64,000 bases of DNA from a virus (IMGVR_UViG_3300025121_000011:1-64000); one strand, 5' to 3'. Positions 1 through 20,511 are shown, counted from the stretch's first letter. Notes: generated from the sequence alone by a model not told the origin. A program made the numbers and translations.

Positions 1-537
1 AATCCTCCTAAATATTTATCTGTATTGATTACTTATACAGTTGCCGCAGATGTTCTGCCTATATTTGAAAAGCATTTTCCGAAGGATTTAAGACCAAGAA
101 AAGCTGTTGAAGCGTCTAAGATGTATTTAGATGGATATGCGGTTGATGCTGATGCTGCTTATGTTGCTTATGCTGCTTATGCTGCTTATGTTGCTGTTTA
201 TGCTGCTTATGTCGCTGCTGATACTGCTTATGCTGCTTATGCTGCTAATGTCGCTTATTATGCTGCTAATGTCGCTTATTGTGCTGCTTATGCTACTGTT
301 AATGACATCGCTGATTATACTGCTTATGCTGTTTATTATGCAGCTCTTGCCTCTTCCGAAGAACACATCTTAAATCTTATTTTATCTCTGCTTCCTCAGA
401 TGATCGATTATGCTGTTGAAAATCAAATCAAGTTGTTTACCGGATCCGGAGATTTCTCAGAGATATTTGAGATGTTAACCGATGAGCAGAAGAAGCTGGT
501 CATATATAATATGAATGTAATTGGGAGTTGGAAATGA
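1..537 (+). CDS. Ala-rich hypervariable-core family protein, copy A1 (5' partial)
   Basis: The first in-frame codons read N-P-P-K-Y. In the sibling genes this is about residue 12, so the true ATG lies just outside the window. Three parts are visible: a conserved head (TVAADVLPIFEKHFPKD, then RPRKAVEASKMYLDGYAV), a core at about window codons 49-116 made of Y/N/D-x-A triplets with a few four-residue steps, and a conserved tail starting ASSEEH with LLPQMIDYAVENQ. There is no signal peptide or membrane segment in what is visible. The stop TGA (535-537) overlaps the next ATG. Function is unknown. The core resembles the alanine-tyrosine repeats found in some bacterial immunity-type proteins, but that is only a resemblance of composition. 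Confidence 0.9.
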   Translation, partial: NPPKYLSVLITYTVAADVLPIFEKHFPKDLRPRKAVEASKMYLDGYAVDADAAYVAYAAYAAYVAVYAAYVAADTAYAAYAANVAYYAANVAYCAAYATVNDIADYTAYAVYYAALASSEEHILNLILSLLPQMIDYAVENQIKLFTGSGDFSEIFEMLTDEQKKLVIYNMNVIGSWK

Positions 538-1091
538 TTTCATCAGGAGATTTGGTTAAATTCATTAATCCTCCTAAATATTTATGCGTATTAATTGCTT
601 ATACAGTTGCCGCAGATGTTCTGCCTATATTTGAAAAGCATTTTCCGAAGGATTTAAGACCAAGAAAAGCTGTTGAAGCGTCTAAGATGTATTTAGATGG
701 ATATGCGGTTGTTGCTGCTGATGCTTATACTGCTGCTTATGCCGCTTATGCTGCTTATGATGCTTATGCTGCTAATGCTACTTATGATGCTAATGCTGCT
801 TATGCTGCTTATGCTGCTTATTATGCTGCCGCTGCTGCTTATGTTTATGCTACCGCTGTCGCTATTGCTAATACTGATTATGTCGCTCGTTATGCGGTTA
901 GAGTCTCTTCTAAAGAACATGTCTTTAATCTTATTTTATCTCTGCTTCCTCAGATGATCGATTATGCCGTTGAAAATCAAATTAAATTATTCACCGGACC
1001 TGGAGACTTCTCAGATATATTTGAGATGTTAACCGATGAACAGAAGAAATCGGTGATATACAATATGGATGTAATTGGAGGTTGGAAATGA
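534..1091 (+). CDS. Ala-rich hypervariable-core family protein, copy A2
   Basis: 185 residues. The start is taken at ATG 534, inside an ATGA overlap with copy A1 and preceded by GGGAG at 523-527. A TTG six bases upstream is in frame but less likely, because all siblings share the MISS start. The head (about residues 1-59, MISSGDLVKFINPPKYL) is followed by an alanine core (about 60-122) and a 62-residue tail. This copy has SSKEH instead of SSEEH at the tail border and begins the core with VVAADAYTAAYAAY. Coupled translation with its neighbours is expected from the overlaps. Function unknown. Confidence 0.9.
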   Translation: MISSGDLVKFINPPKYLCVLIAYTVAADVLPIFEKHFPKDLRPRKAVEASKMYLDGYAVVAADAYTAAYAAYAAYDAYAANATYDANAAYAAYAAYYAAAAAYVYATAVAIANTDYVARYAVRVSSKEHVFNLILSLLPQMIDYAVENQIKLFTGPGDFSDIFEMLTDEQKKSVIYNMDVIGGWK

Positions 1092-1672
1092 TTTCATCAA
1101 GAAATTTGGTTAAATTCATTAATCCTCCAGAATATTTATGCGTATTGATTGCTTATACAGTTGCCGCAGATGTTCTGCCTATATTTGAAGAGAAGTATCC
1201 GAAGGATTTAAGACCGAGAAAAGCTGTTGAAGTTGCTAAGATGTATTTGGAGGGATATGCGGTTGTTGCTGCTGATGTTGATGCTGCTATTTATGCCGCT
1301 GCTGATGCTGCTGATGCTGCTTATGCTGCTAATGCTGCTAATGCTGCTTATTATGCTTATGTTGCTGTCGCTAATGTTGCTAATGCTGCTTATGCTGCTG
1401 CTTATGTTGCTTATTATGCCGCTGTTGCTGATGTTTCTTATACCGTTGCTTATGCTACTTATGCTGCTGATTATGCAGTTTCTGTTTCTTCCGAAGAACA
1501 CATCTTCAATTTGATTCTATCTCTGATTCCTCAGATGATCGATTATGCTGTTGAAAATCAAATCAAATTATTTACTGGATCCGGAGACTTCTCGGAGATA
1601 TTTGAGATGTTAATTGATGAACAGAAGAAGCTGGTGATATTTAATATGGATGTATTTAGGAATTGGAAATGA
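1088..1672 (+). CDS. Ala-rich hypervariable-core family protein, copy A3
   Basis: 194 residues, starting at ATG 1088 in the ATGA overlap with A2. The head differs slightly from A1/A2 (FEEKYPKD, AVEVAKMYLEGY) and matches the array-2 copy at 19334 in the VAKMYLEGYAVVAADVDAA stretch. This suggests segments have been exchanged between the two arrays. The core is about 70 residues, with dipeptides AD, AN, AY and VA in irregular order. The tail ends MDVFRNWK where most copies end MDVIGNWK. Function unknown. Confidence 0.9.
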   Translation: MISSRNLVKFINPPEYLCVLIAYTVAADVLPIFEEKYPKDLRPRKAVEVAKMYLEGYAVVAADVDAAIYAAADAADAAYAANAANAAYYAYVAVANVANAAYAAAYVAYYAAVADVSYTVAYATYAADYAVSVSSEEHIFNLILSLIPQMIDYAVENQIKLFTGSGDFSEIFEMLIDEQKKLVIFNMDVFRNWK

Positions 1673-2247
1673 TTTCATCAAAGAATTTAGTTTACTTCAT
1701 TAATCCTCCTGAATATTTATCTGTATCGATTGCTTATACAGTTGCCGCAGATGTTCTGCCTATATTTGAAAAGCATTTTCCGAAGGATTTAAGACCAAGA
1801 AAAGCTGTTGAAGCGTCTAAGATGTATTTAGATGGATATGCGGTTGATTCTGCTGATGCTTATGATGCTGCTTATGCTGCTTATTCTGCTTATGCTGCTG
1901 CTTATGATGTTGCTGTCGCTGCTAATGCTGCTCATATTGTTTATGCTACTTATGCTGCTGCTGCTGCTAATGCTGCTGCTGCTGTTGTTAACGCTGCTAA
2001 TGCCACCGCTAATGCTGTTGCTGTTAATACTGCTTATGCCGTTTATTATGCAGTTTCTGCCTCTTCCGAAGAACACATCTTCAATCTTATTTTATCTCTG
2101 ATTCCTCAGATGATCGATTATGCTGTTGAAAATCAAATCAAGTTGTTCACCGGATCTGGAGACTTCTCGGAAATATTTGAGAAGTTAACCGATGAACAGA
2201 AGAAATCGGTGATATACAATATGGATGTAATCGGGAATTGGAAATGA
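1669..2247 (+). CDS. Ala-rich hypervariable-core family protein, copy A4
   Basis: 192 residues, starting at ATG 1669 in an ATGA overlap. Head MISSKNLVYFINPPEYL. The core contains the longest near-pure alanine stretches of the first array (AAAAANAAAA region) plus NATANAVAVNTAYAVYYAV. The tail is conserved (IPQMIDYAVENQIKLFTG, then GDFSEIFEKLTDEQKK). The core is predicted to be helical from its composition, but no heptad is evident. Function unknown. Confidence 0.9.
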   Translation: MISSKNLVYFINPPEYLSVSIAYTVAADVLPIFEKHFPKDLRPRKAVEASKMYLDGYAVDSADAYDAAYAAYSAYAAAYDVAVAANAAHIVYATYAAAAANAAAAVVNAANATANAVAVNTAYAVYYAVSASSEEHIFNLILSLIPQMIDYAVENQIKLFTGSGDFSEIFEKLTDEQKKSVIYNMDVIGNWK

Positions 2248-2837
2248 TTTCATCAAAAGATTTGGTTCTCTTCATTAATCCTCCTAAATATTTATCCGTA
2301 TTGATTGCTTATACAGTTGCCGAAGATGTTCTGCCTATATTTGAAAAACAGTATCCAAAGGATTTAAGACCGAGAAAAGCTGTTGAAGCGTCTAAGATGT
2401 ATTTAAATGGATATGCTGCTGATGCTAATGCTGCTTATGATGCTGCTAATGCTGCTTATGATGCTGCTAATGCTGCTTATGCTGCTTATGATGCTGCTAA
2501 TGCTGCTGCTTATGTTGCTTATTATGCTGCTAATGCTGCTGCTGCTTATGTTGCTTATTATGCTGTTTATGCTGTTAATGCTGCTAATGCTGCTTATTAT
2601 GCTGCTAGTGCCGTTTATTATGCAGCCAAAGCCTCTTCCGAAGAACACATCTTTAATCTTATTCTATCTCTGCTTCCTCAGATGATCGATTATGCTGTTG
2701 AAAATCAAATCAAGTTGTTCACCGGTTCTGGAGACTTCTCGGAAATATTTGAGATGTTAACTGATGAACAGAAGAAATCGGTGATATACAATATGGATAT
2801 GTTTTATTTAAGTAATAATAAATTACTTTTTAAGTAA
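2244..2837 (+). CDS. Ala-rich hypervariable-core family protein, copy A5 (array end)
   Basis: 197 residues, starting at ATG 2244 in an ATGA overlap. The core has a regular sub-repeat, NAAYDAA, used several times. The tail is conserved until MDM, then departs into FYLSNNKLLFK in place of the usual VIGNWK. The array ends here and no ATGA coupling follows. The departure looks like a recombination border at the edge of the array. Function unknown. Confidence 0.9.
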   Translation: MISSKDLVLFINPPKYLSVLIAYTVAEDVLPIFEKQYPKDLRPRKAVEASKMYLNGYAADANAAYDAANAAYDAANAAYAAYDAANAAAYVAYYAANAAAAYVAYYAVYAVNAANAAYYAASAVYYAAKASSEEHIFNLILSLLPQMIDYAVENQIKLFTGSGDFSEIFEMLTDEQKKSVIYNMDMFYLSNNKLLFK

Positions 2838-2839
2838 TT
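2821..2839 (+). other. Inverted repeat at the end of array 1
   Basis: AATTACTT (2821-2828) and AAGTAATT (2832-2839) form an 8 bp stem with a 3-base loop overlapping the last codons and stop of copy A5. No U-run follows, so it is a weak terminator candidate at best. Confidence 0.35.
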
Positions 2840-2843
2840 GTCA

Positions 2844-2885
2844 CTACAATATTATTATAATATCATCGGTATAAGTATATTGTAG
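2844..2885 (+). promoter_or_regulatory. Leader hairpin touching the RBS of the 2894 gene
   Basis: CTACAATAT (2844-2852) is a perfect reverse complement of ATATTGTAG (2877-2885). The right arm overlaps the first two bases of the strong Shine-Dalgarno AGGAGGT (2884-2890). The loop contains TATAAT (2856-2861). The structure could modulate translation of the next gene, or the loop could hold a promoter -10 box; a matching -35 at normal spacing is not seen. Confidence 0.4.
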
Positions 2886-2893
2886 GAGGTAAA

Positions 2894-3283
2894 ATGATGC
2901 AGTATGTTGAAGTAAGACATAATCTATATATTTGTTTTAATCCATTTGAAATTGTTGAAGAATCAAGAAAAGTTAATGGGTGTGGAAATAAGTATTATAA
3001 AATTCCTATTATATTATTAATGTTTTTAACTCCAATATTAGGTGGGTTATTTGTAATAGCCTTTCCAATGATTATATTCGCTTCTATCATTTATTCTATC
3101 TTTGCAATAATATTTGGAAATATGAAAGAAGATGTTTTAGGCTTTGGAGTTCAAGAATATGATCCAATTATATCTTATTTAGCAAATCGTGAAATAAAAG
3201 ATTTACCATTAGAAGAAGAAGAATTAGAAGAAGAATTAAAAGAGTTGGTATCTGAAGTTGAAATAGTTAGAAAATCTGAATAA
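2894..3283 (+). CDS. Small membrane protein, unknown function
   Basis: 129 residues, start ATG 2894 behind AGGAGGT. A hydrophobic region from about residue 37 to 75 (PIILLMFLTPILGGLFVIAF and IIFASIIYSIFAIIF) can form two membrane helices. It is followed by a short linker and a very acidic end (LPLEEEELEEELKELVSEVE). No family recognised. It stands alone between array 1 and a long non-coding stretch. Confidence 0.8.
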   Translation: MMQYVEVRHNLYICFNPFEIVEESRKVNGCGNKYYKIPIILLMFLTPILGGLFVIAFPMIIFASIIYSIFAIIFGNMKEDVLGFGVQEYDPIISYLANREIKDLPLEEEELEEELKELVSEVEIVRKSE

Positions 3284-3522
3284 ACCATAAAATAATGAGT
3301 ATAAATAATATTTTGATTATAGATATATTGAATGGAAATATCACCACTAATTAATATATATAATAGGGGGGGCAATACAATGTGATATTTTCTTTTTTTA
3401 AATGGCGGTGTTTGAGGCTATATCTGGTATATCGCAGTTAAGATGCGTGAGGATCTTTGATATGCCGAACAGTGATGTCGACAAATAAATTTTGATTGTT
3501 TTGTGTTATGATTGAAGGCGGT
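3284..3522. other. Non-coding stretch, no gene supported
   Basis: First part of the 476-base gap before the - strand gene at 3760. It contains a G-run (3366-3372) and a T-run (3391-3399) but no ORF with a convincing ribosome site. A 28-codon frame at 3402-3488 follows a T-run and has no Shine-Dalgarno. Together with the hairpin and tRNA-like element that follow, it may be an RNA-gene locus. Confidence 0.4.
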
Positions 3523-3562
3523 GTATCCTATCTATCTATGTTTTTATAGTAGGTGAGGATAC
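3523..3562 (+). other. Long hairpin upstream of the tRNA-like element
   Basis: GTATCCT (3523-3529) pairs perfectly with AGGATAC (3556-3562). Inside it CTATCTAT can pair with ATAGTAG around a T-rich loop. The hairpin ends six bases before the acceptor stem of the tRNA-like element, so it could be a processing signal or part of a larger RNA. Confidence 0.5.
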
Positions 3563-3568
3563 GTTTTG

Positions 3569-3749
3569 GGGCAATTAGCTTATAACTGGATAAAGCATAT
3601 ATATAAAGATTATGAAGCTAATAACAGTATGCATGTTGTTATTAGATTATTATCTTCTACTAACTTATGTAAAGTTACGTTGTGGCCGCAGCGTAAAGAA
3701 AAGTAAGAATATGTAAAGTATAAAAGTGGGTTCGAATCCTACATTGCTC
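3569..3749 (+). tRNA. tRNA-like element with about 110-base insertion in the anticodon region
   Basis: The 5' part has acceptor GGGCAAT (3569-3575), T8, A9, and a D arm GCTT...AAGC (3578-3581 / 3593-3596) whose loop has the conserved GG and A. The 3' part has T arm GTGGG-TTCGAAT-CCTAC (3726-3742) and acceptor ATTGCTC (3743-3749, one G-U pair with the 5' strand), then discriminator T; CCA is not encoded. TATAT (3598-3602) can pair with GTATA (3718-3722) as the anticodon stem, leaving a three-base variable region. Between them lie about 115 bases, including a 9 bp hairpin (3618-3626 / 3637-3645). The anticodon cannot be assigned. It may be a tRNA with a small intron, a decayed tRNA or another tRNA-like RNA. 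Confidence 0.5.
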
Positions 3750-3759
3750 TTATAAAAGA

Positions 3760-4779
3760 TTATTTGAATGAAAACAAACCTACGTCAACAATTTTTAAAT
3801 GATTATCTTTTGTGGACATCATAATGTTTTCAGCGTGAACATCTTTCCAATGAATATTATAACTGCCTGATATAAATCGTAATGTGTCAAGTAGACCTTG
3901 TATATTTTCAGCAACATCATTATTAGGTCTTTTATTAAATATTTCTTCTGAATACGGAAATGCTATTTTAAAAAGTTCTTCTGATAGAAGATCATATATA
4001 ATATCTTTGATATTATAATAATTCGGATTACTGGTGTGTTTTTCAATTATATTAACAACTTGTGTTAAACTCAAAGTGTTTGTTTTTGGAAAATCTTTTA
4101 ATATTTGTTCTATTGTTGAAATATCAACATCCTCTTTAATTCTCTTTTGAATTTCTATTTCTATTTGGGTAATAAAAAGTGGTGTAAGTATTTTACGCCA
4201 AATATCTTTTCTGTATACTTTTGCCGCAGAAAATTCGCTAGCAACTTCGGCTGGAAGTGGTTTTAATTGTTCCATAACAATTAAATCATATAATTCATTT
4301 TCTGGCATAATTGTTCCACGTTTAATTAAATATATTTTTGGAAAATAGTCTGCATATTGTTTTGGCATTTGTTCTATGCGTTTTTGCAGAGCACCCCATA
4401 TTGGAAAGTCATTTGCTAAATAGCTGATAGTGATTTTTGCTGCAACTTGTTGACCCTTATAAATCGCGGAAAATACGCTACCAAATGCACCGGAGCCAAG
4501 ATGCTCCTTTGCATTTTGAGGCACCATTTGCAATCCATTTTCTTTTAGTATTTTTGCAGCCAAACTAATGATAACGGTTTGGTACTTATCTGATTTTTGT
4601 GCCGAAGGAATTATCTTTTCTAAATATTCTTCATCAGATATGGATTTTTCACCAAACTCTTCAGCATCTTCTTTATATCTATCTTCGAAAGATTGGTGTA
4701 ATTCAGAAACTGCTTGAGATTCAACAGTCAGATGTAAATCATTAAGTATTGTCTGCAAAATTTTAAGATAATCTTTCAT
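3760..4779 (-). CDS. Protein kinase-like protein ending just after the DFG-equivalent motif
   Basis: 339 residues, read leftward; start ATG at 4779 preceded by GAGGAAA. Kinase-fold motifs are visible: glycine loop GSGAFGSVF (about 96-103), VAAK with the likely ATP-binding Lys115, catalytic loop IHWKDVHAENIM (His310, Asp313, Asn318) and a metal-binding DVG at 332-334 in place of DFG. About 180 residues, mostly helical and rich in Ile/Lys, separate the N-lobe from the catalytic loop. The protein stops five residues after DVG, so no activation segment or C-terminal helices follow. This matches kinase-like folds more than canonical Ser/Thr kinases. It is one of only two - strand genes and is divergent from the 4857 gene. 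Target unknown. Confidence 0.65.
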   Translation of the reverse strand: MKDYLKILQTILNDLHLTVESQAVSELHQSFEDRYKEDAEEFGEKSISDEEYLEKIIPSAQKSDKYQTVIISLAAKILKENGLQMVPQNAKEHLGSGAFGSVFSAIYKGQQVAAKITISYLANDFPIWGALQKRIEQMPKQYADYFPKIYLIKRGTIMPENELYDLIVMEQLKPLPAEVASEFSAAKVYRKDIWRKILTPLFITQIEIEIQKRIKEDVDISTIEQILKDFPKTNTLSLTQVVNIIEKHTSNPNYYNIKDIIYDLLSEELFKIAFPYSEEIFNKRPNNDVAENIQGLLDTLRFISGSYNIHWKDVHAENIMMSTKDNHLKIVDVGLFSFK

Positions 4780-4856
4780 GCTGATTTCCTCGTTATTATA
4801 ATGTAATGCGTATAATTAGTATGACTTAATATGAAAATTAATTTACTTGGAGAACA
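4780..4856. promoter_or_regulatory. Divergent intergenic region, likely holding promoters
   Basis: 77 bases separate the starts of the kinase-like gene (leftward) and the 4857 gene (rightward), so both must be promoted from here or from within the neighbours. TATAAT occurs at 4811-4816 on the + strand and TTATTATAAT around 4792-4799. No good -35 at standard spacing is seen, so a phage-specific or extended -10 type promoter is possible. Confidence 0.3.
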
Positions 4857-5405
4857 ATGAATCCTTCTTTAAATATTCCATTATTTGAACTCGTTAAAGC
4901 AAAAGATCCTGTTTGTGATATTTTGGGTAATGAAATTATCCGAGGACAGGTGATAGCTTATAGTAAGGGTAGTCGTGGGCAAAGGAATCTGCTTGTCGGG
5001 GTAGTATCATGTCTTGTTCCTCATGGAAAAGGATATTCTATTCATTTAGTTTCCCAATCTGAATGGCACAATTGTAATCATCAGACTTATGCGGGAATAG
5101 ACAATTCTATTGTAATTCTGCATAATCCTCTTTATAGTTTAAATTCAAAAGTAATTGCTAATTTATTTGAAAATGTGGAGTCAATTAAAGGTAAGTCTCA
5201 TGGAGATGTTCAAGAGTTTAATGCAGAAAAAGGACCTGGTTACAGTTTTTATAGAAAAATTCATTGGAAAAATATCTTGCCAATGAATTATAAGTTTGGG
5301 GAAGCATTAGATTTGGAACAATATATTTCAATTCCAAATAAAAAAGAATTGGCTAAATTAGATAAAGCTTTTAAAGAAAAATATAAAAATATTACTGTAT
5401 ATTAG
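4857..5405 (+). CDS. Unknown protein, 182 aa
   Basis: Start ATG 4857 behind GGAG (4849-4852). Soluble, mixed alpha/beta composition, with a His/Cys-containing centre (SEWHNCNHQ) and a Lys-rich end. No signal peptide or membrane segment. The N-terminal half (VCDILGNEIIRGQVIAYSKG) looks like a small beta-barrel, and the end has an IPNKKELAKLDKAFKEKYK helix. No family recognised. It is divergently placed from the kinase-like gene and could be regulated with it. Confidence 0.8.
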   Translation: MNPSLNIPLFELVKAKDPVCDILGNEIIRGQVIAYSKGSRGQRNLLVGVVSCLVPHGKGYSIHLVSQSEWHNCNHQTYAGIDNSIVILHNPLYSLNSKVIANLFENVESIKGKSHGDVQEFNAEKGPGYSFYRKIHWKNILPMNYKFGEALDLEQYISIPNKKELAKLDKAFKEKYKNITVY

Positions 5406-5467
5406 GTTTAAAATTAATTATGATATACTATCAAGCCTTGGTAATGGATAGATAGAGATAAAACACA

Positions 5468-5581
5468 ATGATGTATAATGGTGCTAGTCCGTGGGAAGAT
5501 ATATTAGGTGGTGAAGATATGGAATCAGTTAATATATCCATAGGATGCATTTTGAGACTTGGACTAAGTCTCAAAGAATAG
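5468..5581 (+). CDS. Possible 37-aa small protein
   Basis: ATG 5468 to TAG 5581, beginning MMYNGASPWEDILGGED and ending RLGLSLKE. Composition is protein-like, but the ribosome site is weak (purine-rich AGATAGAGATA upstream). The last codons lie in a perfect inverted repeat, GAGACTT/AAGTCTC, around 5562-5576, which could be a terminator-like hairpin without a U-run. It fills most of an otherwise empty 268-base gap. Confidence 0.4.
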   Translation: MMYNGASPWEDILGGEDMESVNISIGCILRLGLSLKE

Positions 5582-5673
5582 TTGTAATTAATTTTTTGTT
5601 TTAACGATAGAATAAATTTTATCATATAAATAAAATAAAGATAGTAATAAGATTATATATTTACGGAGGTTTA

Positions 5674-6126
5674 ATGAGCCAAGAGAAATATGAAGCCAAA
5701 ATTCAAAAATATATACTTCTTATAGAGGCTAATCCAAATGATAAAACTCTAGATGATATAAGATTTGAAGTCACACTTCATCAGTTTTATCCCATTACGT
5801 GTCGAGATATAGAGATTGGGTGTGAATGTCCTGTTGGCTGGCGTAAAATTGTAGAATGTGCAATTTCCGCTATAGAAGAGATAGCAACAAATACCACTTC
5901 TTCTCCACCGCAAGTGGTTCAAATAAAACAAAAATACGGCACATTAAGAATATATATGATGTCAGAAGGCCATCCAGATGTTAGTAGAATTATAGATTTA
6001 GCTGAAAAGAAGTGTCATCGGACATGCACAAAATGTGGAGACTCTGGAATATTTAGAACTCAAATTCCTTGGGGTGGAGTATTGTGCGATCATCATTATG
6101 AGATATGGGTGACAGAGCATATTTAA
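5674..6126 (+). CDS. Small phage protein with C-terminal Cys/His zinc-binding end
   Basis: 150 residues, start ATG 5674 behind GGAGGT. Near residues 90-100 it has KYGTLRIYM, the signature of a widespread, unnamed group of small phage and bacterial proteins (usual form KFGTLRFY). After it come CTKCGDSG (two Cys) and VLCDHHYEIW (Cys-His-His), which look like a treble-clef type zinc site. The middle has CECPVGWRKIVECA. Function of the group is not known; it is soluble and small. Confidence 0.75.
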   Translation: MSQEKYEAKIQKYILLIEANPNDKTLDDIRFEVTLHQFYPITCRDIEIGCECPVGWRKIVECAISAIEEIATNTTSSPPQVVQIKQKYGTLRIYMMSEGHPDVSRIIDLAEKKCHRTCTKCGDSGIFRTQIPWGGVLCDHHYEIWVTEHI

Positions 6127-6181
6127 TTACATTATTTCATGAATATTAGAATCCGCCTGATATGGCGAAGTTAGGTTTGGA

Positions 6182-6841
6182 GTGAAGTTATTTAACATTC
6201 CCATTAAATTTCATTGGTCATCTGTTTTTTTATTGCTGATGATTTTTTGTACTTCTAATTTTAGTATTATTTATGGATGTGTAATTGCGATAATGGTTTT
6301 GTTTTCCTTAATAGGGCATGAGCTGGCACACTGTTTGGTTGCTCGTGAATTTAATTATGATACCAAAGATATAACCATTATGGCTTTAGGCGGTGTAGCG
6401 CAAATAGCTCGCGCATCTAAAATGTCAGCTAAAGAAAATTTTTTAATGTCAATAGCGGGTCCAACATTTAACTTGTTTTGCGTAATAATACTTTTTATTC
6501 CTGCTATAATTTTAATTAATACGTTTTTAGGTTTAACAATATGTTACGCTATGGCGATCAACCTAATTATGTTTGGTTTCAATATGTTACCAGCTTATCC
6601 GTTAGATGGCAGTAGAGTATTTGGAGCTGTAATAGAATACTTTTTCGGAAAACAAAAAAGTATTTTGATGACAACCTGGATATCTTTAGCATCTGGAGTA
6701 TGTATTTGTTTTTTTGGAGGAATCAGTGGTTCTATATTTATTCTGATTATTGGCTTCATTGTTTGCTTTATTTCTTCTCCAGCACTTATAAGAAAGATAC
6801 AAAATACCTTTAGGTTTAAAAATGATAGATTCAATGTTTGA
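6182..6841 (+). CDS. M50-family intramembrane metalloprotease (site-2 protease type)
   Basis: 219 residues. Start GTG 6182; no in-frame ATG lies upstream, and the first residues MKLFNIPIKFHWS match the usual N-terminus of the family. Zinc site HELAH (46-50) sits inside a hydrophobic helix, and the third ligand motif MLPAYPLDGSR has Asp142. Five to six hydrophobic segments and the ALGGVAQ loop also fit M50B proteases. These enzymes cleave transmembrane segments of regulators or remnant signal peptides. A phage copy could act on host membrane or envelope proteins; the substrate is unknown. It overlaps the next gene by 20 bases. Confidence 0.85.
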   Translation: MKLFNIPIKFHWSSVFLLLMIFCTSNFSIIYGCVIAIMVLFSLIGHELAHCLVAREFNYDTKDITIMALGGVAQIARASKMSAKENFLMSIAGPTFNLFCVIILFIPAIILINTFLGLTICYAMAINLIMFGFNMLPAYPLDGSRVFGAVIEYFFGKQKSILMTTWISLASGVCICFFGGISGSIFILIIGFIVCFISSPALIRKIQNTFRFKNDRFNV

Positions 6842-7157: not shown

Positions 7158-7183
7158 AATATATAATCTACAGAGAGTTATCA

Positions 7184-10405: not shown

Positions 10406-11320
10406 ATGCCCGCCATGTTTGGTACCTTATTCTTTAAGCCAAAAAGCGCTATTCGTGTCACCAATTTAAATGATGTTTATGTTGCTAATGGAGTTATAAT
10501 TGATCAAGCCGATAAAACTAAGATAATCAATCTTAAGAATATTAAGAGGCTGGCACATAGTAACAATGGTAGATTATTTGTTTTGGATTTTGTTGGTGAT
10601 GTTATGGCATCCCAAGCTGAGGCTTTATCGCAAGAAGTGAATGCGATACTGGCCGCTGGAAATCCAAATTTAGATCAGGTTCTAATTAGACTTGAAAGTC
10701 CCGGTGGAGCGGTCCATGTATATGGATATGCCTCTTCTCAATTGCAGAGGATTAGAAATGCGGGATATGACATGACAGTGGCTGTAGATAAAGTTGCGGC
10801 ATCAGGCGGATATATGATGGCTTGTATCGCACATAATATTATTTCTGCACCATATGCTATCGTTGGTTCTATAGGTGTGGTGTCGGAGTTTATGAATTTT
10901 AATACCTTGTTGGAATCAATTGGAATCAATTACAAACAGTATACTGCTGGAAAATATAAGCGAACAGTGGGTCCTTTAGGTCCAATTACCGTTGAGGCTG
11001 AAGCAAAGTTTAATAGCGACTTAGATCGTGTACATCGGTTGTTCAAGGATCATGTTAAAAAATTTCGAAATAGTTTGGATATAGATGAAATTGCAACCGG
11101 AGAGTATTGGTACGGTTTAGATGCAAAAGAGCGTGGACTAGTTGATCAGATTCTTCCTAGTGATGATTTTATTATTCAGGCTCTTTCCAAGAAGGAGGTT
11201 TTACATATCCAGTATATTCCGCATCGCAGTTTTGGTGATAAACTTAGATTGGGTTTTGTCAAAGCAATTAAAGATGTTGCACTTGAAATGATTAGTACTT
11301 ACATGCATTTAAGGCTTTAA
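10406..11320 (+). CDS. S49-family serine protease (SppA/SohB type)
   Basis: 304 residues. ClpP-like fold with the SppA/SohB motifs: RLESPGGAVHVYG (95-107), catalytic Ser133 in VAASGGYMMAC, and catalytic Lys in AGKYKRTVGP (181-190), followed by GEYWYGLDAKERGLVD. In phages, S49 proteases usually mature the prohead, while cellular ones degrade signal peptides. There is no clear signal peptide, so a cytoplasmic or prohead role is more likely, though no capsid genes are adjacent. The next gene starts two bases after the stop. Confidence 0.85.
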   Translation: MPAMFGTLFFKPKSAIRVTNLNDVYVANGVIIDQADKTKIINLKNIKRLAHSNNGRLFVLDFVGDVMASQAEALSQEVNAILAAGNPNLDQVLIRLESPGGAVHVYGYASSQLQRIRNAGYDMTVAVDKVAASGGYMMACIAHNIISAPYAIVGSIGVVSEFMNFNTLLESIGINYKQYTAGKYKRTVGPLGPITVEAEAKFNSDLDRVHRLFKDHVKKFRNSLDIDEIATGEYWYGLDAKERGLVDQILPSDDFIIQALSKKEVLHIQYIPHRSFGDKLRLGFVKAIKDVALEMISTYMHLRL

Positions 11321-12860: not shown

Positions 12861-12896
12861 TATGTTGATGAGTTAAATGATATTGTGAGGTTTAAA

Positions 12897-13405: not shown

Positions 13406-13454
13406 AAATATTGATTTTAGATATTCAAATTTCTTAAGAAAGAATAAATATTTA

Positions 13455-13816: not shown

Positions 13817-13855
13817 CTATTTAACGGTGTCTTGTAAAGGAGGGTTTTGAGAATA

Positions 13856-14473
13856 ATGGATTTAAAAAAGTTAGTTAATGATGCTAGAATATCAGCAGTT
13901 AAAGCAAATAATGAAAGACTGAGACTGAAAGAGGAGAAAGCGGAAGAGCTTAAAAGAAAATTAGATTCTTTTTCAAATGAATTTATATCAAATAGACTCC
14001 CAAAATTATTGAGGGATGCCATAGATAATAGCAGAACATATATTTATGTTTGCTTTCTGGATAATAGGCGCTATATAATTCCATATAACATAGAACATAT
14101 AAGATACCTAGCTCAAGCAGTTGAAAAAGAAACGGGATTAGTATGTGCTGTATCTGAAGATATAGTAGAAGAAAATTCTACTTTAAATCAACTCATTCTT
14201 AATATCGATCTTCTCTCTTTTAAATCTCCCGATGAATGGGTGGATTCCAGCCTTAATGCTTGTGCTTTTTTTGACACTTATCATCACGGAGAGAAATCCT
14301 GGTATGTAGCGATTTCAGATGAAGAGTTTAAACAGTTACTGGCAGATGAGGATCAACTTAGGAAGGGGAAATGGACTGATTTGGCTAATAAGATTTTTGA
14401 TCGTCCTCATTTAGAGCCTCCCAATCTTTCTCATTGTAAGCTTTCTAACAGTGTTCTAATTGCGGTGTGTTGA
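13856..14473 (+). CDS. Unknown protein with N-terminal coiled coil, 205 aa
   Basis: ATG 13856 is preferred; the ribosome site AGGAGG is 12 bases before it, while an in-frame TTG at 13847 is too close to it. Residues 1-45 are a charged helix (KANNERLRLKEEKAEELKRK) likely to form a coiled coil. The rest is a mixed domain containing YIIPYNIEHIRYLAQAVEKE and a C-terminal YHHGEKSWYVAISDEEF. Starts 40 bases after the tmRNA. No family recognised. Confidence 0.75.
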   Translation: MDLKKLVNDARISAVKANNERLRLKEEKAEELKRKLDSFSNEFISNRLPKLLRDAIDNSRTYIYVCFLDNRRYIIPYNIEHIRYLAQAVEKETGLVCAVSEDIVEENSTLNQLILNIDLLSFKSPDEWVDSSLNACAFFDTYHHGEKSWYVAISDEEFKQLLADEDQLRKGKWTDLANKIFDRPHLEPPNLSHCKLSNSVLIAVC

Positions 14474-14501
14474 TGAGCAGATTTAACTCTAAGGTGAAGT
14501 A

Positions 14502-14732
14502 ATGAAAGTTAAAGCTCTAATAATGAAGTTGCAAAAGCTTGATCAAAATTTGGATGTCTATATCATGGAAGATGACGATGATTATGGATTGGTAGGTAGT
14601 TGTATTGAGCAGTTGTTTGTAACAGAGCATTCTGAAAAAAGAACGGCTCCTGTTGATGAAGATGATGTTGCAAATGGCGAGATTACTCTAAGTCCAAAGG
14701 ATAAGTTGTTTAGAGCTGTCTGGATTTTGTGA
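14502..14732 (+). CDS. Small phage protein, 76 aa
   Basis: Start ATG 14502 behind AAGGTGAAG. The first 25 residues (MKVKALIMKLQKLDQNLDVYI) match a common opening of small phage proteins in which a helix LIekLqkld is followed by a strand reading out as vvv or vyi. The middle is acidic (EDDDDYG). Function of such proteins is unknown. The stop overlaps the region of the next gene's ribosome site. Confidence 0.8.
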   Translation: MKVKALIMKLQKLDQNLDVYIMEDDDDYGLVGSCIEQLFVTEHSEKRTAPVDEDDVANGEITLSPKDKLFRAVWIL

Positions 14733-14743
14733 GGACCCTTAAA

Positions 14744-15061
14744 ATGATAGAAATGGAAAAATCTCTTGAAGAGGAATTGCTTGATTTTGGATTTAAAAGA
14801 GTAATATCCATTAAAAATGTAACATTCACAAGGATACCTTTGAAATATAAGTGTTATACGTATAAGAATGACCAAATGTCTATTTGCATTTTTATATATA
14901 TAAGTTTAAAAAATATATGGCATAATCATGCGGCATGGGTATATGAGGAATATGATGAAGGCCAATTATTAAAGGCTCTATGTGGAGAATATCAAGATAT
15001 AGAATATTATCTTCCATTAGAATTAAGAGAAAGATTGTTGTATCATTTGTATGAATTGTAA
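14744..15061 (+). CDS. Unknown small protein, 105 aa
   Basis: ATG 14744 with GAGG at 14731-14734; GTG 14729 is an in-frame alternative overlapping the upstream stop. Mixed alpha/beta with a Tyr-rich strand region (YKCYTYKNDQMSICIFIYISL) and an acidic helix at the end. No motif recognised. Confidence 0.7.
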   Translation: MIEMEKSLEEELLDFGFKRVISIKNVTFTRIPLKYKCYTYKNDQMSICIFIYISLKNIWHNHAAWVYEEYDEGQLLKALCGEYQDIEYYLPLELRERLLYHLYEL

Positions 15062-15193
15062 TAAATATTTATCACGAAGAATGGTGTGATAGATTTATTG
15101 TATAAATGTAATACTTATCAAGTTACCGAAGCATATTCGTGTTGAGATGTTATATTATTCAGATATATTACTCGGGCTTTCTAAATAACAATA

Positions 15194-15235
15194 TATGTCA
15201 TTTTTTTCTTAGAAGGTGGACAAAAAAATGACATA
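15194..15235. terminator. Perfect 14 bp inverted repeat, candidate bidirectional terminator
   Basis: TATGTCATTTTTTT (15194-15207) is the exact reverse complement of AAAAAAATGACATA (15222-15235), with a 14-base spacer. The T7 and A7 tracts face each other inside the arms rather than trailing the stem, so it is unusual for a terminator and could also be a protein-binding palindrome. It is the only structured item seen in the 265-base gap 15062-15326. Confidence 0.4.
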
Positions 15236-15326
15236 ATCACTGGATGCAGTATTTCTATGCAGATTAAAGAATGTAGAAATTTTTGCTAATGGTAGTAGGA
15301 TTTTTCATCAGTTATATAGGAGTGTT

Positions 15327-15986
15327 ATGGATAGAAAAGTACATTGGGTTTCTAGATCAAAAGATAAAAAGACAGGAGAGGTTTTGGTTTCTTATTCTCC
15401 AAAAGAAACTTGTCCAAAAACTTGTTCTCTTAAAAAAGGAGGGTGTTACGCATGGGGTCTTTATTATTTAAAATCGTTGGGAGATAAATTATCCTCTGGA
15501 AAACTGGTTCCAAGAACATTAGATATTGCTATTAAGAATATCTTGCCTACAACAAAAATAGCGCGTCATAGGGTGGCTGGAGATGTTGTCGGGGATGTAG
15601 CTGCTACAATACAAGAATGTCGGGATCTAGATTCGGCGGGATTAATTAATATAGGATATACTCACAATTGGAGAGCAGCAGAATCTCAACCCTTAAAGCA
15701 TTACTTCAGAGCATCATGTCAATCAGTTGAAGAGGTATTAATCGCTAGAGAAATGGGTTGGGCAACAACTTTGATTGTCTCACAAGGTGTAGATAAAAAA
15801 ACCAAACTTCCTAATGGTGAATTTTCAGTAAAATGTCCGGCTAAACATGATATCGCTGGAAAGAAAGATGTTACCTGTAATACCTGCACATTATGTCGAG
15901 TGGATGGTAAAACGGAAAAGACAACAGTTATGTTTGAAGTGCATGGAAATAATTCAACTATTCAGAAGGCTAATGGAAAAATTTGA
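15327..15986 (+). CDS. Cys-rich phage protein of an uncharacterised family
   Basis: 219 residues, start ATG 15327 behind ATAGGAG. N-terminal cluster CPKTCSLKKGGCYA (about 31-44), then R-H-R-V-A-G-D, and a C-terminal cluster with CPAKH, CNTCTLC. Phage proteins with the CP-x-x-C-x-x-K/R-x-x-GCYA and H-x-x-GD pattern form a known but functionally undescribed group. The Cys pattern suggests an iron-sulfur or zinc site. The barrel-like succession of strands (GLINIGYTHNW, TTLIVSQG) suggests a TIM-barrel-like enzyme, which is my inference. Alone between two gaps. Confidence 0.7.
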   Translation: MDRKVHWVSRSKDKKTGEVLVSYSPKETCPKTCSLKKGGCYAWGLYYLKSLGDKLSSGKLVPRTLDIAIKNILPTTKIARHRVAGDVVGDVAATIQECRDLDSAGLINIGYTHNWRAAESQPLKHYFRASCQSVEEVLIAREMGWATTLIVSQGVDKKTKLPNGEFSVKCPAKHDIAGKKDVTCNTCTLCRVDGKTEKTTVMFEVHGNNSTIQKANGKI

Positions 15987-16007
15987 TAAAATTATAGGAG
16001 TAAAGTA

Positions 16008-16253
16008 ATGGGAGATTGGATTGGAAATAGAGTCGAAGAGGCTTTAGGAGCACTTCGTGGGGCTATGTATGATTTAAAAGTAGAAAACAATAAGGCTCAT
16101 GTTGTACTGGATTCATACGATATTCCGCAGTATACGGATGGCGAACTAAGTCGCCCACTCACATTGTCAGAAAGAATACAACTTAATCATGAAAAAGATC
16201 AAAATTATATTTTAAAATTATGTGAACAATTATTCATCGCAAGTAACGTTTAA
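16008..16253 (+). CDS. Unknown small protein, 81 aa
   Basis: ATG 16008, ribosome site AGGAG at the end of the upstream gap. Helical start (WIGNRVEEALGALRGAMYDLK) and a conserved-looking QYTDGELSRPLTLSERI stretch. No family recognised. Confidence 0.75.
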   Translation: MGDWIGNRVEEALGALRGAMYDLKVENNKAHVVLDSYDIPQYTDGELSRPLTLSERIQLNHEKDQNYILKLCEQLFIASNV

Positions 16254-16297
16254 CTAAATAAAAAAATAGAAAAAGTAACAATATGTTTGGAGAGTAT

Positions 16298-16633
16298 ATG
16301 AAAAAAAATCCTGAAGCAGGAGAATTGGTTTGCCTTAGTTCTAATGATAAATTTGCTTATCCGCATGGAGTAGCTTTATACTTAGATGATGGTAAAGTGG
16401 TTTTACCATCTTATTTGAAGGGGTGGGTTGTAACCGATATTGATGGTTTAGAAAATTATAGCACATTTGGCCGACATAATATCAGGAAAACACATTTCAA
16501 TGAATATGGAGAGATATGTGGATATGATTATTTAGCATATGATGCAGGTATTCCAACCGAACTTTGTCTTAGAAGAACAAATGGAGAATGGATTATTTCA
16601 AATGAGTTTAAACTTCCGACGTGGGTTCAGTAG
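16298..16633 (+). CDS. Unknown protein, 111 aa
   Basis: ATG 16298 is preferred because GGAG (16289-16292) is five bases before it; in-frame ATG 16283 would add MFGEY. Beta-rich with many Gly and aromatic residues (SYLKGWVVTDIDGLENYS). It converges with the - strand gene; their 3' ends overlap by 26 bases. Function unknown. Confidence 0.7.
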   Translation: MKKNPEAGELVCLSSNDKFAYPHGVALYLDDGKVVLPSYLKGWVVTDIDGLENYSTFGRHNIRKTHFNEYGEICGYDYLAYDAGIPTELCLRRTNGEWIISNEFKLPTWVQ

Positions 16634-17531
16634 TTTTAAACAGATCATCAAAGAAACTCATTCCTCTTTCATCTATAATAGAATTCATAACTTCTGAATA
16701 TTTTTTAGAAACATTTTGTTGAATGGTGTGAATAACTTTATCAAAGTCTGGTAAGATCTGGCCTTCTGTTGCCCACTGGATGCCCATAATTGCGATAGAT
16801 AAACCAATATCTATCCAAAATAAAGATCCGGCAGATACAAGTTCTATAAAAGCCAAAACAGCATCTTTTACTGCATCTATAGAATTTGCAATTAATCCGA
16901 TAAATTCTTTAATAAAACCACGAGAAGCTTTTGATAACTGATCAACAGAGATTGTTTTTTCAGGGTCCTCACGAGTTTGTTCTGTGATGGAATTTAGTAT
17001 TTTTGGATCTAATGCATCTTTCCAAGAAATTCCTAAAGTGTCAGAAACACCTAAAACATTAGATAATTCTTTGGAGCCGTAATATAGGTTTTTTAATGCA
17101 AAAGCAATACTGAAGAATACACCAATAAAAGGAATGGCGCGCAAAGTAGCCCCAGCCAAAGCTTGCTTTATTAAGATTGGATTATGTTCAATTTGAGATA
17201 GATGTTTCAATGTTGCGGTTTTAGTTTCACTTGATATCATTTGATCAACATATTTGCCAGCCTCTTTTAAGGCATTTGGATCCGCACTTCTAATTTTATT
17301 TCCAGCATCGGCTAATTGACCGATTCCTACAGAAAAGTATTGCATGGCTCTGGTGTTTAAAGTTGGCTCATAAGGTTTTGCAACTTCTGAAAATGTGTGT
17401 CGCCATTGTTCAAATTCTTTATTTAGATTTGCATCTAGTGCTAAAATAATTAATTGACGCGTTTCCAAAGAGGCGTCTATATAATTATAGTGGTCTAAAA
17501 TTTTAGAAAGTTGAAGAAGTTGTTTATTCAT
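16608..17531 (-). CDS. Membrane-associated protein, 307 aa, unknown function
   Basis: Read leftward; start ATG at 17531 preceded by GAGGCAA. A long helical N-terminal half leads to a hydrophobic pair: ATLRAIPFIGVFFSIAFAL (about 128-146) and SAGSLFWIDIGLSIAIMGI (about 234-252). A soluble helical end follows. The topology resembles small phage virion or membrane-penetrating proteins, but no family can be named. One of two - strand genes. It is divergent from 17575 and convergent with 16298. Confidence 0.7.
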   Translation of the reverse strand: MNKQLLQLSKILDHYNYIDASLETRQLIILALDANLNKEFEQWRHTFSEVAKPYEPTLNTRAMQYFSVGIGQLADAGNKIRSADPNALKEAGKYVDQMISSETKTATLKHLSQIEHNPILIKQALAGATLRAIPFIGVFFSIAFALKNLYYGSKELSNVLGVSDTLGISWKDALDPKILNSITEQTREDPEKTISVDQLSKASRGFIKEFIGLIANSIDAVKDAVLAFIELVSAGSLFWIDIGLSIAIMGIQWATEGQILPDFDKVIHTIQQNVSKKYSEVMNSIIDERGMSFFDDLFKTTEPTSEV

Positions 17532-17574
17532 TGTTGCCTCATTTTCTTAGTTTAAAATTAGTAGAGGATATATT

Positions 17575-18663
17575 ATGAAAGTAGTAAAAAGTAGCGAAGA
17601 AGTGGATCAGCTTATTTTACAATTAACATCAAAAGAGTTTTTGGGTTTACAACCTATTTTGGCAGGAGGGTTTGTAGCTTGGTTATATCAATTGGAGACT
17701 AATAGTCAAGAACAAATACCAGAGATTATAACTGCATATAAGAATATGAAGAAAATAAGAGAAACGGCATCCATTGCTGGCGTAAATTTAAATATTATTA
17801 CAACAGTAAAATATGATTTTTTATCTAATTATCCATATTATGATATAGATGCTTGGTTTAAAAATACAAATGATGTTTGGGATATTAATAATCCAGAGTC
17901 TGTTTTGATAACCGCAGAAGGAGAACGAGATCTCTTAAAAGAGATGGCAATTAAAATAGGCTTTCAAGATGTAAAGCATCAGTCTCTCTGGGCAAATACA
18001 TTATCTAGGCGTATCCGCTCTGATAATCATGAAGATAAATTGCAAATTATAATTCGACCATATTCTTCTACAGAAGAGATATTATCATCTTTTGATTTAG
18101 ACGGATGTAAGATTGGTTGGGAAAATGGATTTTTTCATCTTACAGATGAGTTTTTAGAGTCTATCCAAAATAGAAGAATAATTATAAATGATAATAATTG
18201 GAAATCTTCAGAACATTTTCAAAGAGTACAAACGGCGCTTAGAGCTTTCAAGTATCACAAAAGAATGGGATGGCCACTTTCTAAAGACTCTTTAAATAAG
18301 ATTTTTGAAGTTTATCAAGAAGTGTTCTCTCATAAAAAATATAAAGTTTCTGTTGTAAAAACAACAAGTCTAATCACCAAGGTTAGTACCGGGATTTCAT
18401 CAGTTTTGTCAAAAATATTACCAAAAATGTCGCCACATATGGCTCATCAGATTTCGATTTATGGACAGAATAAAAGCGTAGATGTGTTAAAGGATTTTCA
18501 GATGAAACTGTTGGATTCTTTTGAGATAATTGTTGTTCAGCCGGATTTCGAAAGTAGCATGCTTCCGTATTTTATTGGTACAGGTAATTATAAGATAGAA
18601 AAATTAGTTTTGGCTATGATGGAGTGTGAATCTAACAATAATTCTAGTACGTCAAAAATATGA
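17575..18663 (+). CDS. Nucleotidyltransferase-fold-like protein
   Basis: 362 residues, start ATG 17575, AGAGGAT upstream. Residues 26-34 read LAGGFVAWL, then YYDIDAWF (about 83-90) as a possible metal-binding DxD, then LQIIIRPYSSTEEILSSFDLDGCKIGW (about 157-183), and a helical RVQTALRAFKYHKRMGWPL. This order is shared with a loose group of nucleotidyltransferase-fold proteins found in viruses and eukaryotes that have a GG-motif, a DID strand and an F-D-D/L-D strand. Activity is not established for the group. The C-terminal third has Ser/Lys-rich helices. Confidence 0.5.
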   Translation: MKVVKSSEEVDQLILQLTSKEFLGLQPILAGGFVAWLYQLETNSQEQIPEIITAYKNMKKIRETASIAGVNLNIITTVKYDFLSNYPYYDIDAWFKNTNDVWDINNPESVLITAEGERDLLKEMAIKIGFQDVKHQSLWANTLSRRIRSDNHEDKLQIIIRPYSSTEEILSSFDLDGCKIGWENGFFHLTDEFLESIQNRRIIINDNNWKSSEHFQRVQTALRAFKYHKRMGWPLSKDSLNKIFEVYQEVFSHKKYKVSVVKTTSLITKVSTGISSVLSKILPKMSPHMAHQISIYGQNKSVDVLKDFQMKLLDSFEIIVVQPDFESSMLPYFIGTGNYKIEKLVLAMMECESNNNSSTSKI

Positions 18664-18752
18664 ATGTAGAGAATTCTTCTATATTTAAATTTATTTAGAT
18701 GATGTATTTGCATTCATAATTTATATTTTATTATAATACGGTGAGTATTTGT

Positions 18753-19337
18753 ATGTTACCAGATTCATTGGTTTATTTTATTCAACCTTCATCATACTTA
18801 GCTGTATTAATTGCTTATACGGTAGCTATGGATGTTTTGCCAATATTTGAAACGCAGAGACCAACAGATGATAAACTTAGGCAAATCATTAGTGTATGTA
18901 AGATGTATTTAAAATATATCTTAATTGATGTTAGGTCGCTGAATGATGATATTAAACGCTTATCTCGTGAACTTAAGTCCTACAATCCTGCTATGGACAG
19001 TTATGAATATATTTATATTGTTAACACAGCTGTTAGTGTTTTTGCAACTTTAAATTCTGCTATTAGATTTAAGAAAACTGGTATACTTATTAATCAGATA
19101 GATGCTTCTCTTAATAATGCTGCTGATGTTGTTTATTATGCAGCTCTCGCCTCTTCCGAAGAACACATCTTCAATTTGATTCTATCTCTGTTTCCTCAGA
19201 TGATCAATTATGCTGTTGAAAATCAAATCAAGTTGTTCACCGGACCTGGAGATTTCTCAGAGATATTTGAGATGTTAACCGATGAACAGAAGAAGCTGGT
19301 GATATATAATATGGATGTAATTGGAAATTGGAAATGA
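18753..19337 (+). CDS. Family protein copy B1 with non-repetitive core
   Basis: 194 residues. ATG 18753 is preferred over GTG 18741, because GGTGAG then forms the ribosome site and MLPDSLVYFIQPSSYL aligns with MISSKDLVYFINPPKYL of the siblings. The head is diverged (FETQRPTDDKLRQIISVCKMYL). The centre is an ordinary mixed sequence (DVRSLNDDIKRLSRELKSY and AVSVFATLNSAIRFKKTG) instead of the alanine repeat. From DVVYYAALASSEEH the tail is the same as in all others. It may keep the ancestral core from which the repetitive cores replaced or expanded. Confidence 0.9.
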   Translation: MLPDSLVYFIQPSSYLAVLIAYTVAMDVLPIFETQRPTDDKLRQIISVCKMYLKYILIDVRSLNDDIKRLSRELKSYNPAMDSYEYIYIVNTAVSVFATLNSAIRFKKTGILINQIDASLNNAADVVYYAALASSEEHIFNLILSLFPQMINYAVENQIKLFTGPGDFSEIFEMLTDEQKKLVIYNMDVIGNWK

Positions 19338-19951
19338 TTTCATCAAAAGATTTGGTTTTATTCATTAATCCTCCTAAATATTTATCCGTATTAATTGCTT
19401 ATACAGTTGCCGCAGATGTTCTGCCTATATTTGAAAAGCATTTTCCGAAGGATTTGAGACCGAGAAAAGCTGTTGAAGTTGCTAAGATGTATTTGGAGGG
19501 ATATGCGGTTGTTGCTGCTGATGTTGATGCTGCTGCTTATGATGCTGCTGATGCTGCTTATGATGCTGCTAATGCTGCTTATGATGCTGCTAATGCTGCT
19601 TATGCTGCTTATACTAATGTTGTTGTTGTTAATGCCGCTGTTTATGCTGTTTATTATGCCGCTGCTCATGCTGCTTATGCTGCTCATGCTTCTTATGCTG
19701 CTACTTATGCTGCTTCTTATGCTGCTTCTTATGCTGCTTCTGCTGCTTGTTATGCAGCCAAAGCCTCTTCCGAAGAACACATCTTCAACCTGATTTTATC
19801 TCTGCTTCCTCAGATGATCGATTATGCTGTTGAAAATCAAATTAAGTTATTCACAGGACCCGGAGATTTCTCAGGAATATTTGAGATGTTAACCGATGAG
19901 CAGAAGAAGCTGGTGATATTTAATATGGATGTAATTGGGAATTGGAAATGA
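19334..19951 (+). CDS. Ala-rich hypervariable-core family protein, copy B2
   Basis: 205 residues, the longest copy. ATG 19334 lies in an ATGA overlap. The head carries VAKMYLEGYAVVAADVDAA as in copy A3, 18 kb away. The core has YDAANAA units, a VVVVN patch and a late ASYAASYAASAACYAA run. The tail is standard, ending MDVIGNWK. Function unknown. Confidence 0.9.
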   Translation: MISSKDLVLFINPPKYLSVLIAYTVAADVLPIFEKHFPKDLRPRKAVEVAKMYLEGYAVVAADVDAAAYDAADAAYDAANAAYDAANAAYAAYTNVVVVNAAVYAVYYAAAHAAYAAHASYAATYAASYAASYAASAACYAAKASSEEHIFNLILSLLPQMIDYAVENQIKLFTGPGDFSGIFEMLTDEQKKLVIFNMDVIGNWK

Positions 19952-20511
19952 TTTCATCAAGAGATTTAGTTTACTTCATTAATCCTCCAAAATATTTATC
20001 CGTATTAATTGCTTATACAGTTGCCACAGATGTTCTGCCTATATTTGAAAAGCAGCATTCGAAGGATTTAAGACCAAGAAAAGCTGTTGAAGCGTCTAAG
20101 ATGTATTTGGATGGATATGCGGTTGATGCTGTTTATGCTGCTCATGCTTCTGCTGCTTATGCTGCTTATGTCACTGCTGATACTGTTTATGCTGCTTATG
20201 CTGCTAATGCTGCTGCTAATGCTGCTGCTGCTTATGCTGCTTATGCCGCTTATGTTGTTGTTGATTATGCTGCTTATGCTGTTTATTATGCAGCTCTTGC
20301 CTCTTCCGAAGAACACATCTTCAACCTGATTTTATCTCTGCTTCCTCAGATGATCAATTATGCTGTTGAAAATCAAATCAAGTTGTTTACGGGATCTGGA
20401 GATTTCTCAGAGATATTTGAGATATTAACCGATGAACAGAAGAAACCAGTGATATACAATATGGATGTAATTGGGAGTTTAAAGAGTATAATTTTAGAAA
20501 AGGAGAAATGA
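19948..20511 (+). CDS. Ala-rich hypervariable-core family protein, copy B3 (array end)
   Basis: 187 residues, ATG 19948 in an ATGA overlap. The head has the same KMYLDGYAVDA border as copy A1, and core segments such as AAYVTADTVYAAYAAN parallel A1's AAYVAADTAYAAYAAN. The tail departs after MDVIG into SLKSIILEKEK. The new ending itself supplies AAGGAG for the next gene, whose ATG overlaps this stop. Confidence 0.9.
   Translation: MISSRDLVYFINPPKYLSVLIAYTVATDVLPIFEKQHSKDLRPRKAVEASKMYLDGYAVDAVYAAHASAAYAAYVTADTVYAAYAANAAANAAAAYAAYAAYVVVDYAAYAVYYAALASSEEHIFNLILSLLPQMINYAVENQIKLFTGSGDFSEIFEILTDEQKKPVIYNMDVIGSLKSIILEKEK

What the first reader, a model, noticed from the sequence alone, without database searches (positions are those of the whole stretch)
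1..20511. Multi-copy gene family with constant ends and a hypervariable Ala-Tyr repeat core
Eight copies (1-2837 and 18753-20511) keep head and tail almost identical in DNA, while the core of about 50-90 residues differs in length and order in every copy. Segments such as VAKMYLEGYAVVAADVDAA occur in both arrays, 18 kb apart. The pattern fits repeat slippage plus gene conversion acting as a diversity generator, like a variable surface or decoy protein, an anti-immunity protein, or a binding repertoire. I know of no described phage system of this form.
Basis: partly seen in the sequence, partly recalled or inferred. Interest (0 to 1): 0.85.

Follow-up and report, generated by a model that had tools for sequence, protein, structure and literature searches.

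The report
Phage tandem array of hypervariable Imm5-like genes
A giant bacteriophage carries at least eleven intact near-duplicate genes whose ends stay constant while an alanine-tyrosine helical middle differs in every copy; the proteins belong to a known but untested 'immunity-like' family, and the array looks like a repertoire of blocking proteins diversified by repeat turnover and recombination between copies.

Summary
The window is the start of a 335-kb virus record. It holds 5+3 tandem genes joined by ATGA stop/start overlaps. The record has a third array (3 intact genes plus a remnant) and one distant member; two short contigs, probably of the same assembly graph, hold six or more further copies. 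Seven of the eight window copies have the Ala-Tyr core; the first gene of array 2 has an unrelated core but a family-type tail.

The family is not unknown: it matches Pfam PF21805 (Imm5_like), and single-copy phage relatives with Ala-Tyr/Ala-Trp cores are common. Unusual is the amplification into coupled arrays.

Evidence supports recombination among copies (site-order test P<0.0005), repeat turnover in the core (third base 90% T against 41% in other genes), purifying selection on the tail (pN/pS 0.12), and an excess of amino-acid-changing differences in the core. A sister jumbo phage lacks the family and has an empty array-2 site. In a single-copy relative, two nearly identical phages differ by an exact 66-nt in-frame core deletion.

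Function (polyimmunity-like blocking of a toxin or defence protein) is inferred, not shown. A new variant of a known kind.

The parts
1..537 (+). A1.1, first gene of array 1 (its first 33 nt lie at record bases 335010-335042, before the end repeat); head to 138, Ala-Tyr core 139-351, tail 352-537
   Evidence: the join across the record ends is not proven
534..1091 (+). A1.2; core 705-905, tail 906-1091
   Evidence: PF21805 1.3e-6
1088..1672 (+). A1.3; core 1259-1486, tail 1487-1672; the copy modelled by AlphaFold
1669..2247 (+). A1.4; core 1840-2061, tail 2062-2247
2244..2837 (+). A1.5, last gene of array 1; core 2415-2633, tail 2634-2837 with a divergent C-terminus
18741..19337 (+). A2.1, first gene of array 2 (GTG 18741 or ATG 18753): divergent head, unrelated non-repeat core 18921-19151, family-type (converted) tail 19152-19337
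   Evidence: head 60-65%, tail 88-97% identical to other copies
19334..19951 (+). A2.2, longest core (87 codons, 19505-19765), tail 19766-19951
   Evidence: shares a 20-codon exact core block with A1.5
19948..20511 (+). A2.3, last gene of array 2; core 20119-20301, tail 20302-20511
   Evidence: PF21805 1.9e-5
18664..20507 (.). Segment between two flanking genes that holds array 2 here and is only 15 bp in the sister jumbo phage (L097)

Best explanation
The arrays encode a paralogous family of small all-alpha proteins, the amplified phage branch of Imm5_like (PF21805). Constant N- and C-terminal helices hold a variable Ala-rich helical core. Shown or strongly supported: head and tail segments are exchanged between copies and arrays; cores differ in length in-frame through gain and loss of short GCT/NAT codon units, and differ from each other mostly by amino-acid-changing substitutions; tails are under purifying selection; the sister phage does without the family. 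Inferred from sequence: each array is a translationally coupled operon (ATGA overlaps). Inferred function: the phage makes many versions at once as protein-binding blockers of a fast-changing host or competitor protein (a toxin or defence effector), working like a 'homogeneous polyimmunity locus'. My probabilities: evolutionary mechanism about 0.8; blocking repertoire about 0.4.
For: PF21805 matches 12 places of the record, 5 over the curated cut-off. The D-x-RPR-x-A-[IV]-E motif is shared with bacterial, archaeal and phage relatives. The AlphaFold model's best viral fold match is an Imm-5-like phage protein (probability 1.00, TM 0.52, E 0.005). Recombination: best head partner differs from best tail partner in nearly all copies; PHI-like test 0 of 2000 permutations; converted tail in A2.1. 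Turnover and diversification: third base 90% T against 41% in other genes; two-fold codons T:C 331:4 in cores against 357:107 in heads and tails, p=7e-23; 13% of core departures from GCT/TAT at codon position 3 against about 30% in a neutral simulation; 12 non-synonymous and 0 synonymous differences in homologous core stretches (not independent). Tyr spacing enriched at 3, 4 and 7, depleted at 2 and 5. Tail pN/pS 0.12. Sister phage with empty site and no family member. The operon form matches polyimmunity loci as described in PMC3482391.
Against: No function is known to me for PF21805 phage members; 'immunity' is a predicted name. No recognised toxin gene lies in or beside the arrays, and Imm5 is not listed among the families that form prominent homogeneous polyimmunity loci. 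The phage branch lacks the histidine motifs common in cellular members. The excess of changing substitutions could partly come from copying a few NNT units by repeat turnover rather than from selection. Many copies could simply reflect dosage. Expression is unknown.
Confidence: 0.5

Rival explanations
1. Dosage with a tolerant filler: the constant head and tail do the work, copies are kept for amount, and the Ala-rich core is a structurally tolerant helical spacer that drifts by repeat turnover without selection for variety.
For: Tail strongly constrained, core loosely patterned; third-base-locked repeat cores of varying length also in single-copy phage relatives, with residues that follow the local repeat unit.
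Against: Core differences are poorer in position-3 changes than a neutral simulation (13% against about 30%) and synonymous sites in cores are frozen while amino acids differ; a pure spacer would not need this.
Confidence: 0.3
2. Sequential switching: one copy is expressed at a time and the others are donors, as in gene-conversion antigen variation systems of bacteria.
For: Segment exchange between copies and arrays.
Against: All array copies are complete genes with their own starts, coupled by ATGA overlaps, unlike silent partial cassettes.
Confidence: 0.07
3. Retroelement-driven diversification (DGR).
For: Variation confined to one segment, mostly at codon positions 1 and 2.
Against: No reverse transcriptase in the record; length change and tandem repeats are not the DGR pattern; the record may be incomplete.
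Confidence: 0.02
4. Assembly artefact: core differences or copy number come from misjoined repeats.
For: Contigs of the graph end in this family at k=127.
Against: Each core is different and open in frame, arrays 2 and 3 sit inside unique flanks, tails show purifying selection; individual junctions such as A1.1 may still be wrong.
Confidence: 0.05

Closest known systems
Imm5_like, Pfam PF21805 (and Imm5, PF14423)
   Same: Profile match over the N-terminal helices and Ala-rich region, D-x-RPR-x-A-[IV]-E motif, all-alpha fold
   Different: Here tandem and multi-copy, with a C-terminal domain of about 60 aa that a profile-based scan of viral contigs found only on the two contigs that also carry this family's copies; lacks the cellular His motifs
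Single-copy phage Imm5-like proteins with Ala-Tyr/Ala-Trp repeat cores (L028, L034, L036, L041, L052, L056)
   Same: Same head motif and Ala-aromatic core, third-base lock in most, core length change between near-identical phages (L052/L053)
   Different: One gene per locus in the flanks fetched; other N-terminal extensions; no arrays seen
Homogeneous polyimmunity loci (Zhang et al. 2012, PMC3482391)
   Same: Tandem same-strand paralogues of one immunity-type family, very short spacing, no toxin genes inside, presence differs between relatives
   Different: On a phage; three or more loci rather than the usual one; near-identical ends with a repeat core; immunity role untested
Diversity-generating retroelements
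   Same: Variation confined to a defined segment
   Different: No reverse transcriptase found; length-changing repeats

Membership tests
Imm5_like (PF21805) | Profile score over the curated cut-off | tested here: met
   5 of 12 matched places in the record over 25 bits; 2 of 7 scanned window proteins at or above the cut-off, the rest below it with E 2e-5 to 0.016
Imm5_like (PF21805) | Conserved PxDxRPRxA[IV]E motif after the first long helix | tested here: met
   lost in A2.1 and in the lone member
Imm5_like (PF21805) | All-alpha fold like other members | tested here: met
   model pLDDT 85, pTM 0.83, best BFVD match an Imm-5-like phage protein; a second model of a short-core copy was weak and gave no convincing match
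Imm5_like (PF21805) | Neutralises a cognate toxin (predicted role, not part of the profile) | not testable with these tools
   no experiment found; predicted only
Imm5_like, cellular subgroup | Histidine motifs AAHAAA and AG[QH]AxATxHV in the core | tested here: not met
   17 and 22 of 28 cellular proteins, 0 of 20 single-copy phage proteins; absent from the window cores
Homogeneous polyimmunity locus | Tandem paralogues of one family, same strand, minimal spacing | tested here: met
   ATGA overlaps in all arrays
Homogeneous polyimmunity locus | No toxin genes interleaved | tested here: met
Homogeneous polyimmunity locus | Differs between close relatives | tested here: met
   empty site in the sister phage, which is only 55% identical in the gene compared
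Homogeneous polyimmunity locus | Members are immunity proteins in fact | not testable with these tools
   needs toxin-protection assays
Diversity-generating retroelement | Reverse transcriptase gene | tested here: not met
   PF00078 absent in the record, found in control genomes
Gene-conversion antigen system with silent cassettes | One expression site plus incomplete silent donors | tested here: not met
   array copies are complete ORFs with own starts; expression itself not testable

The most novel reading that the evidence does not exclude
A giant phage keeps an expressed repertoire of ten or more Imm5-like binders. Their helical faces, built from a restricted Ala/Tyr/Asp/Asn/Val/Ser set of NNT codons, are diversified by repeat turnover and inter-copy recombination under diversifying selection, giving counter-defence or counter-toxin proteins of many specificities without a reverse transcriptase.
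Probability: 0.2. Interest if true: 0.85.

Novelty: new variant of a known kind. Interest (0 to 1): 0.6.

Why it matters
Phage Imm5-like proteins with Ala-aromatic repeat cores are widespread and, as far as I could find, untested. This record gives a natural set of over a dozen variants on one scaffold, so core diversity can be tied to binding directly. If the variants bind different targets, it would be a repeat-based route to protein-binding diversity in viruses, and would extend polyimmunity loci from bacteria to a phage.

Tried and rejected
(1) Diversity-generating retroelement: no reverse transcriptase. (2) Overlapping Leu/Met-rich ORFs in the +1 frame and Ser/Ile ORFs on the opposite strand through the Ala-Tyr cores: by-products of the NNT lock, since relatives locked on C would give quite different residues in that frame. 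(3) Known anti-phage defence family: no PADLOC match for the copies. (4) Solved structures: no sequence or fold relative. (5) tblastn against named phages found nothing at E 1e-3 and 0.01, probably because low-complexity cores are masked and heads are divergent. (6) Relatives of the lone member in viral contigs: none. (7) Sister-phage equivalents of one gene beside each of arrays 1 and 3: not found, so only the array-2 site could be compared. (8) Model of the short-core copy A3.1: core at pLDDT 41-48, no convincing fold match, so how core length is accommodated stays open. (9) Promoter and terminator scans gave no more than shuffles. (10) Literature searches gave no description of such phage arrays.

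Full report
Observation. The window is bases 1-64000 of a 335,169-base virus record. Eight genes of one family lie in it: five in array 1 (the first begins at record base 335010 and runs to window 537; then 534-1091, 1088-1672, 1669-2247, 2244-2837) and three in array 2 (18741-19337, 19334-19951, 19948-20511). Neighbouring genes overlap by ATGA, so each array reads as a translationally coupled operon (sequence; inference). A third array of three intact genes and a decayed remnant lies at 295.3-297.2 kb, and a lone 25%-identical member at 327.4 kb. Two contigs, L009 and L010 (metagenome 3300025073), carry six or more further copies.

Assembly caution. The first and last 127 bases of the record are identical, lie inside the family, and are also the exact last 127 bases of L010; L009 starts with 98 of them. 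This is what a k=127 assembly gives at a multi-copy repeat (inference). The three records are therefore probably neighbours in one assembly graph, and neither the circular closure nor the joined gene A1.1 is proven. The flanking DNA of L009/L010 is not in the record, so the genome may be larger, or a second related element may be present.

Constant ends, variable core. Between copies head and tail are each 91.5% identical in DNA on average; pN/pS is 0.45 in the head and 0.12 in the tail. Cores are 48-87 codons. They use GCT for 87% of Ala codons (40% in other window genes) and T at 90% of third positions (41% elsewhere). Two-fold codons in cores are T:C 331:4 against 357:107 in heads and tails of the same family (p=7e-23). 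First and second positions vary: only 13% of departures from GCT/TAT are at position 3, against about 30% in a neutral simulation. Homologous core stretches differ by 12 changing and 0 silent codon differences, though the pairs are not independent. This fits young, renewed repeat DNA whose retained variation is mostly amino-acid changing; copying of a few NNT units could produce part of it, so diversifying selection is suggested, not proven.

Recombination. Best head partner and best tail partner differ for nearly every copy, and a site-order (PHI-like) test gave none of 2000 permutations as extreme. Cores in different arrays share exact in-frame blocks of up to 20-21 codons, one of them shifted in position. 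A2.1 has a head 60-65% identical to the rest, an unrelated non-repeat core and a tail 88-97% identical, which I read as a gene-conversion junction near its core end.

What family. Pfam scans give Imm5_like PF21805 (best 1.3e-6; five places over the cut-off in the record). PHROG 38757, of unknown function, is the phage family hit. Profile scans found 34 viral and 40 cellular loci, a few of the latter unrelated by eye. Cellular members (Heimdallarchaeota, Micrarchaeota, Clostridium, Rubrobacter and others) mostly have His motifs in the core. Phage members have Ala-Tyr or Ala-Trp repeat cores without them; most are locked on T, C or T/G third bases whatever the GC content of the locus, a few (for example L043) are not. 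In these loci I saw one copy each in the flanks fetched, so the array is the unusual part. The C-terminal domain was found only in this phage and on the two contigs that carry its copies.

Fold. The AlphaFold model of A1.3 is all-helical, pLDDT 85, pTM 0.83, though the other four models were weaker (54-66). Its best viral match is an Imm-5-like phage protein, TM 0.52. There is no PDB match. A short-core copy modelled poorly in the core. Tyr-type residues in cores sit 3, 4 and 7 apart more often than in shuffles and rarely 2 or 5 apart, as on one helix face.

Comparative tests. A sister jumbo phage (332,270 bases; 55% identity in the gene after array 2) keeps the gene order there but has 15 bp where array 2 would be, and no family member above noise in its record. 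In a single-copy relative, contigs L052 and L053, 99.7-100% identical over 12 kb, differ by an exact 66-nt in-frame deletion in the Ala-Trp core. Two other near-identical pairs (L034/L035, L036/L037) have unchanged cores.

Interpretation. The best reading is an amplified, recombining phage branch of Imm5-like proteins, acting as a set of protein-binding blockers in the manner of homogeneous polyimmunity loci: tandem, same strand, closely spaced, no toxin inside, variable between relatives (PMC3482391). Membership in PF21805 is supported; the immunity function is not shown. The main rival is a tolerant repeat core with copies kept for dosage. The two are separated by core-swap binding tests and population-level reads.

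Noticed in passing
window 1-127 and record end 335043-335169: The 127-bp terminal repeat that would mark the record as circular lies in a multi-copy gene family and is also the end of contig L010, so the closure is not proven.
   Followed up: yes
window 34106-35674, 47899-49575, 51911-55138: Intein-like insertions in an IMP dehydrogenase, a primase-like gene and an SbcC/Rad50-like gene (one search supports the first and third as split or intein-family matches; the second is by eye).
   Followed up: partly
window 3760-4779 (-): Protein-kinase-like gene near array 1 (Pkinase 2.3e-8; partial PADLOC matches to PD-T4-6 and mad6).
   Followed up: partly
window 30764-31804: Short (346 aa) adenylosuccinate-synthase-like gene; matches PurA models much better than PurZ.
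   Followed up: partly
window 23367-24953: Phage-encoded GroEL with strong family match.
   Followed up: no
window 10406-11320: SohB/SppA-type S49 protease in the phage.
   Followed up: no
L012 about 1800-2108 (G000 about 295299-295607): Decayed non-repeat copy at the head of array 3 with a family-type tail end, parallel to A2.1 heading array 2.
   Followed up: partly
L051-L054, core near L052:6135-6200: An exact 66-nt in-frame repeat deletion is almost the only difference between near-identical phage contigs L052 and L053.
   Followed up: yes
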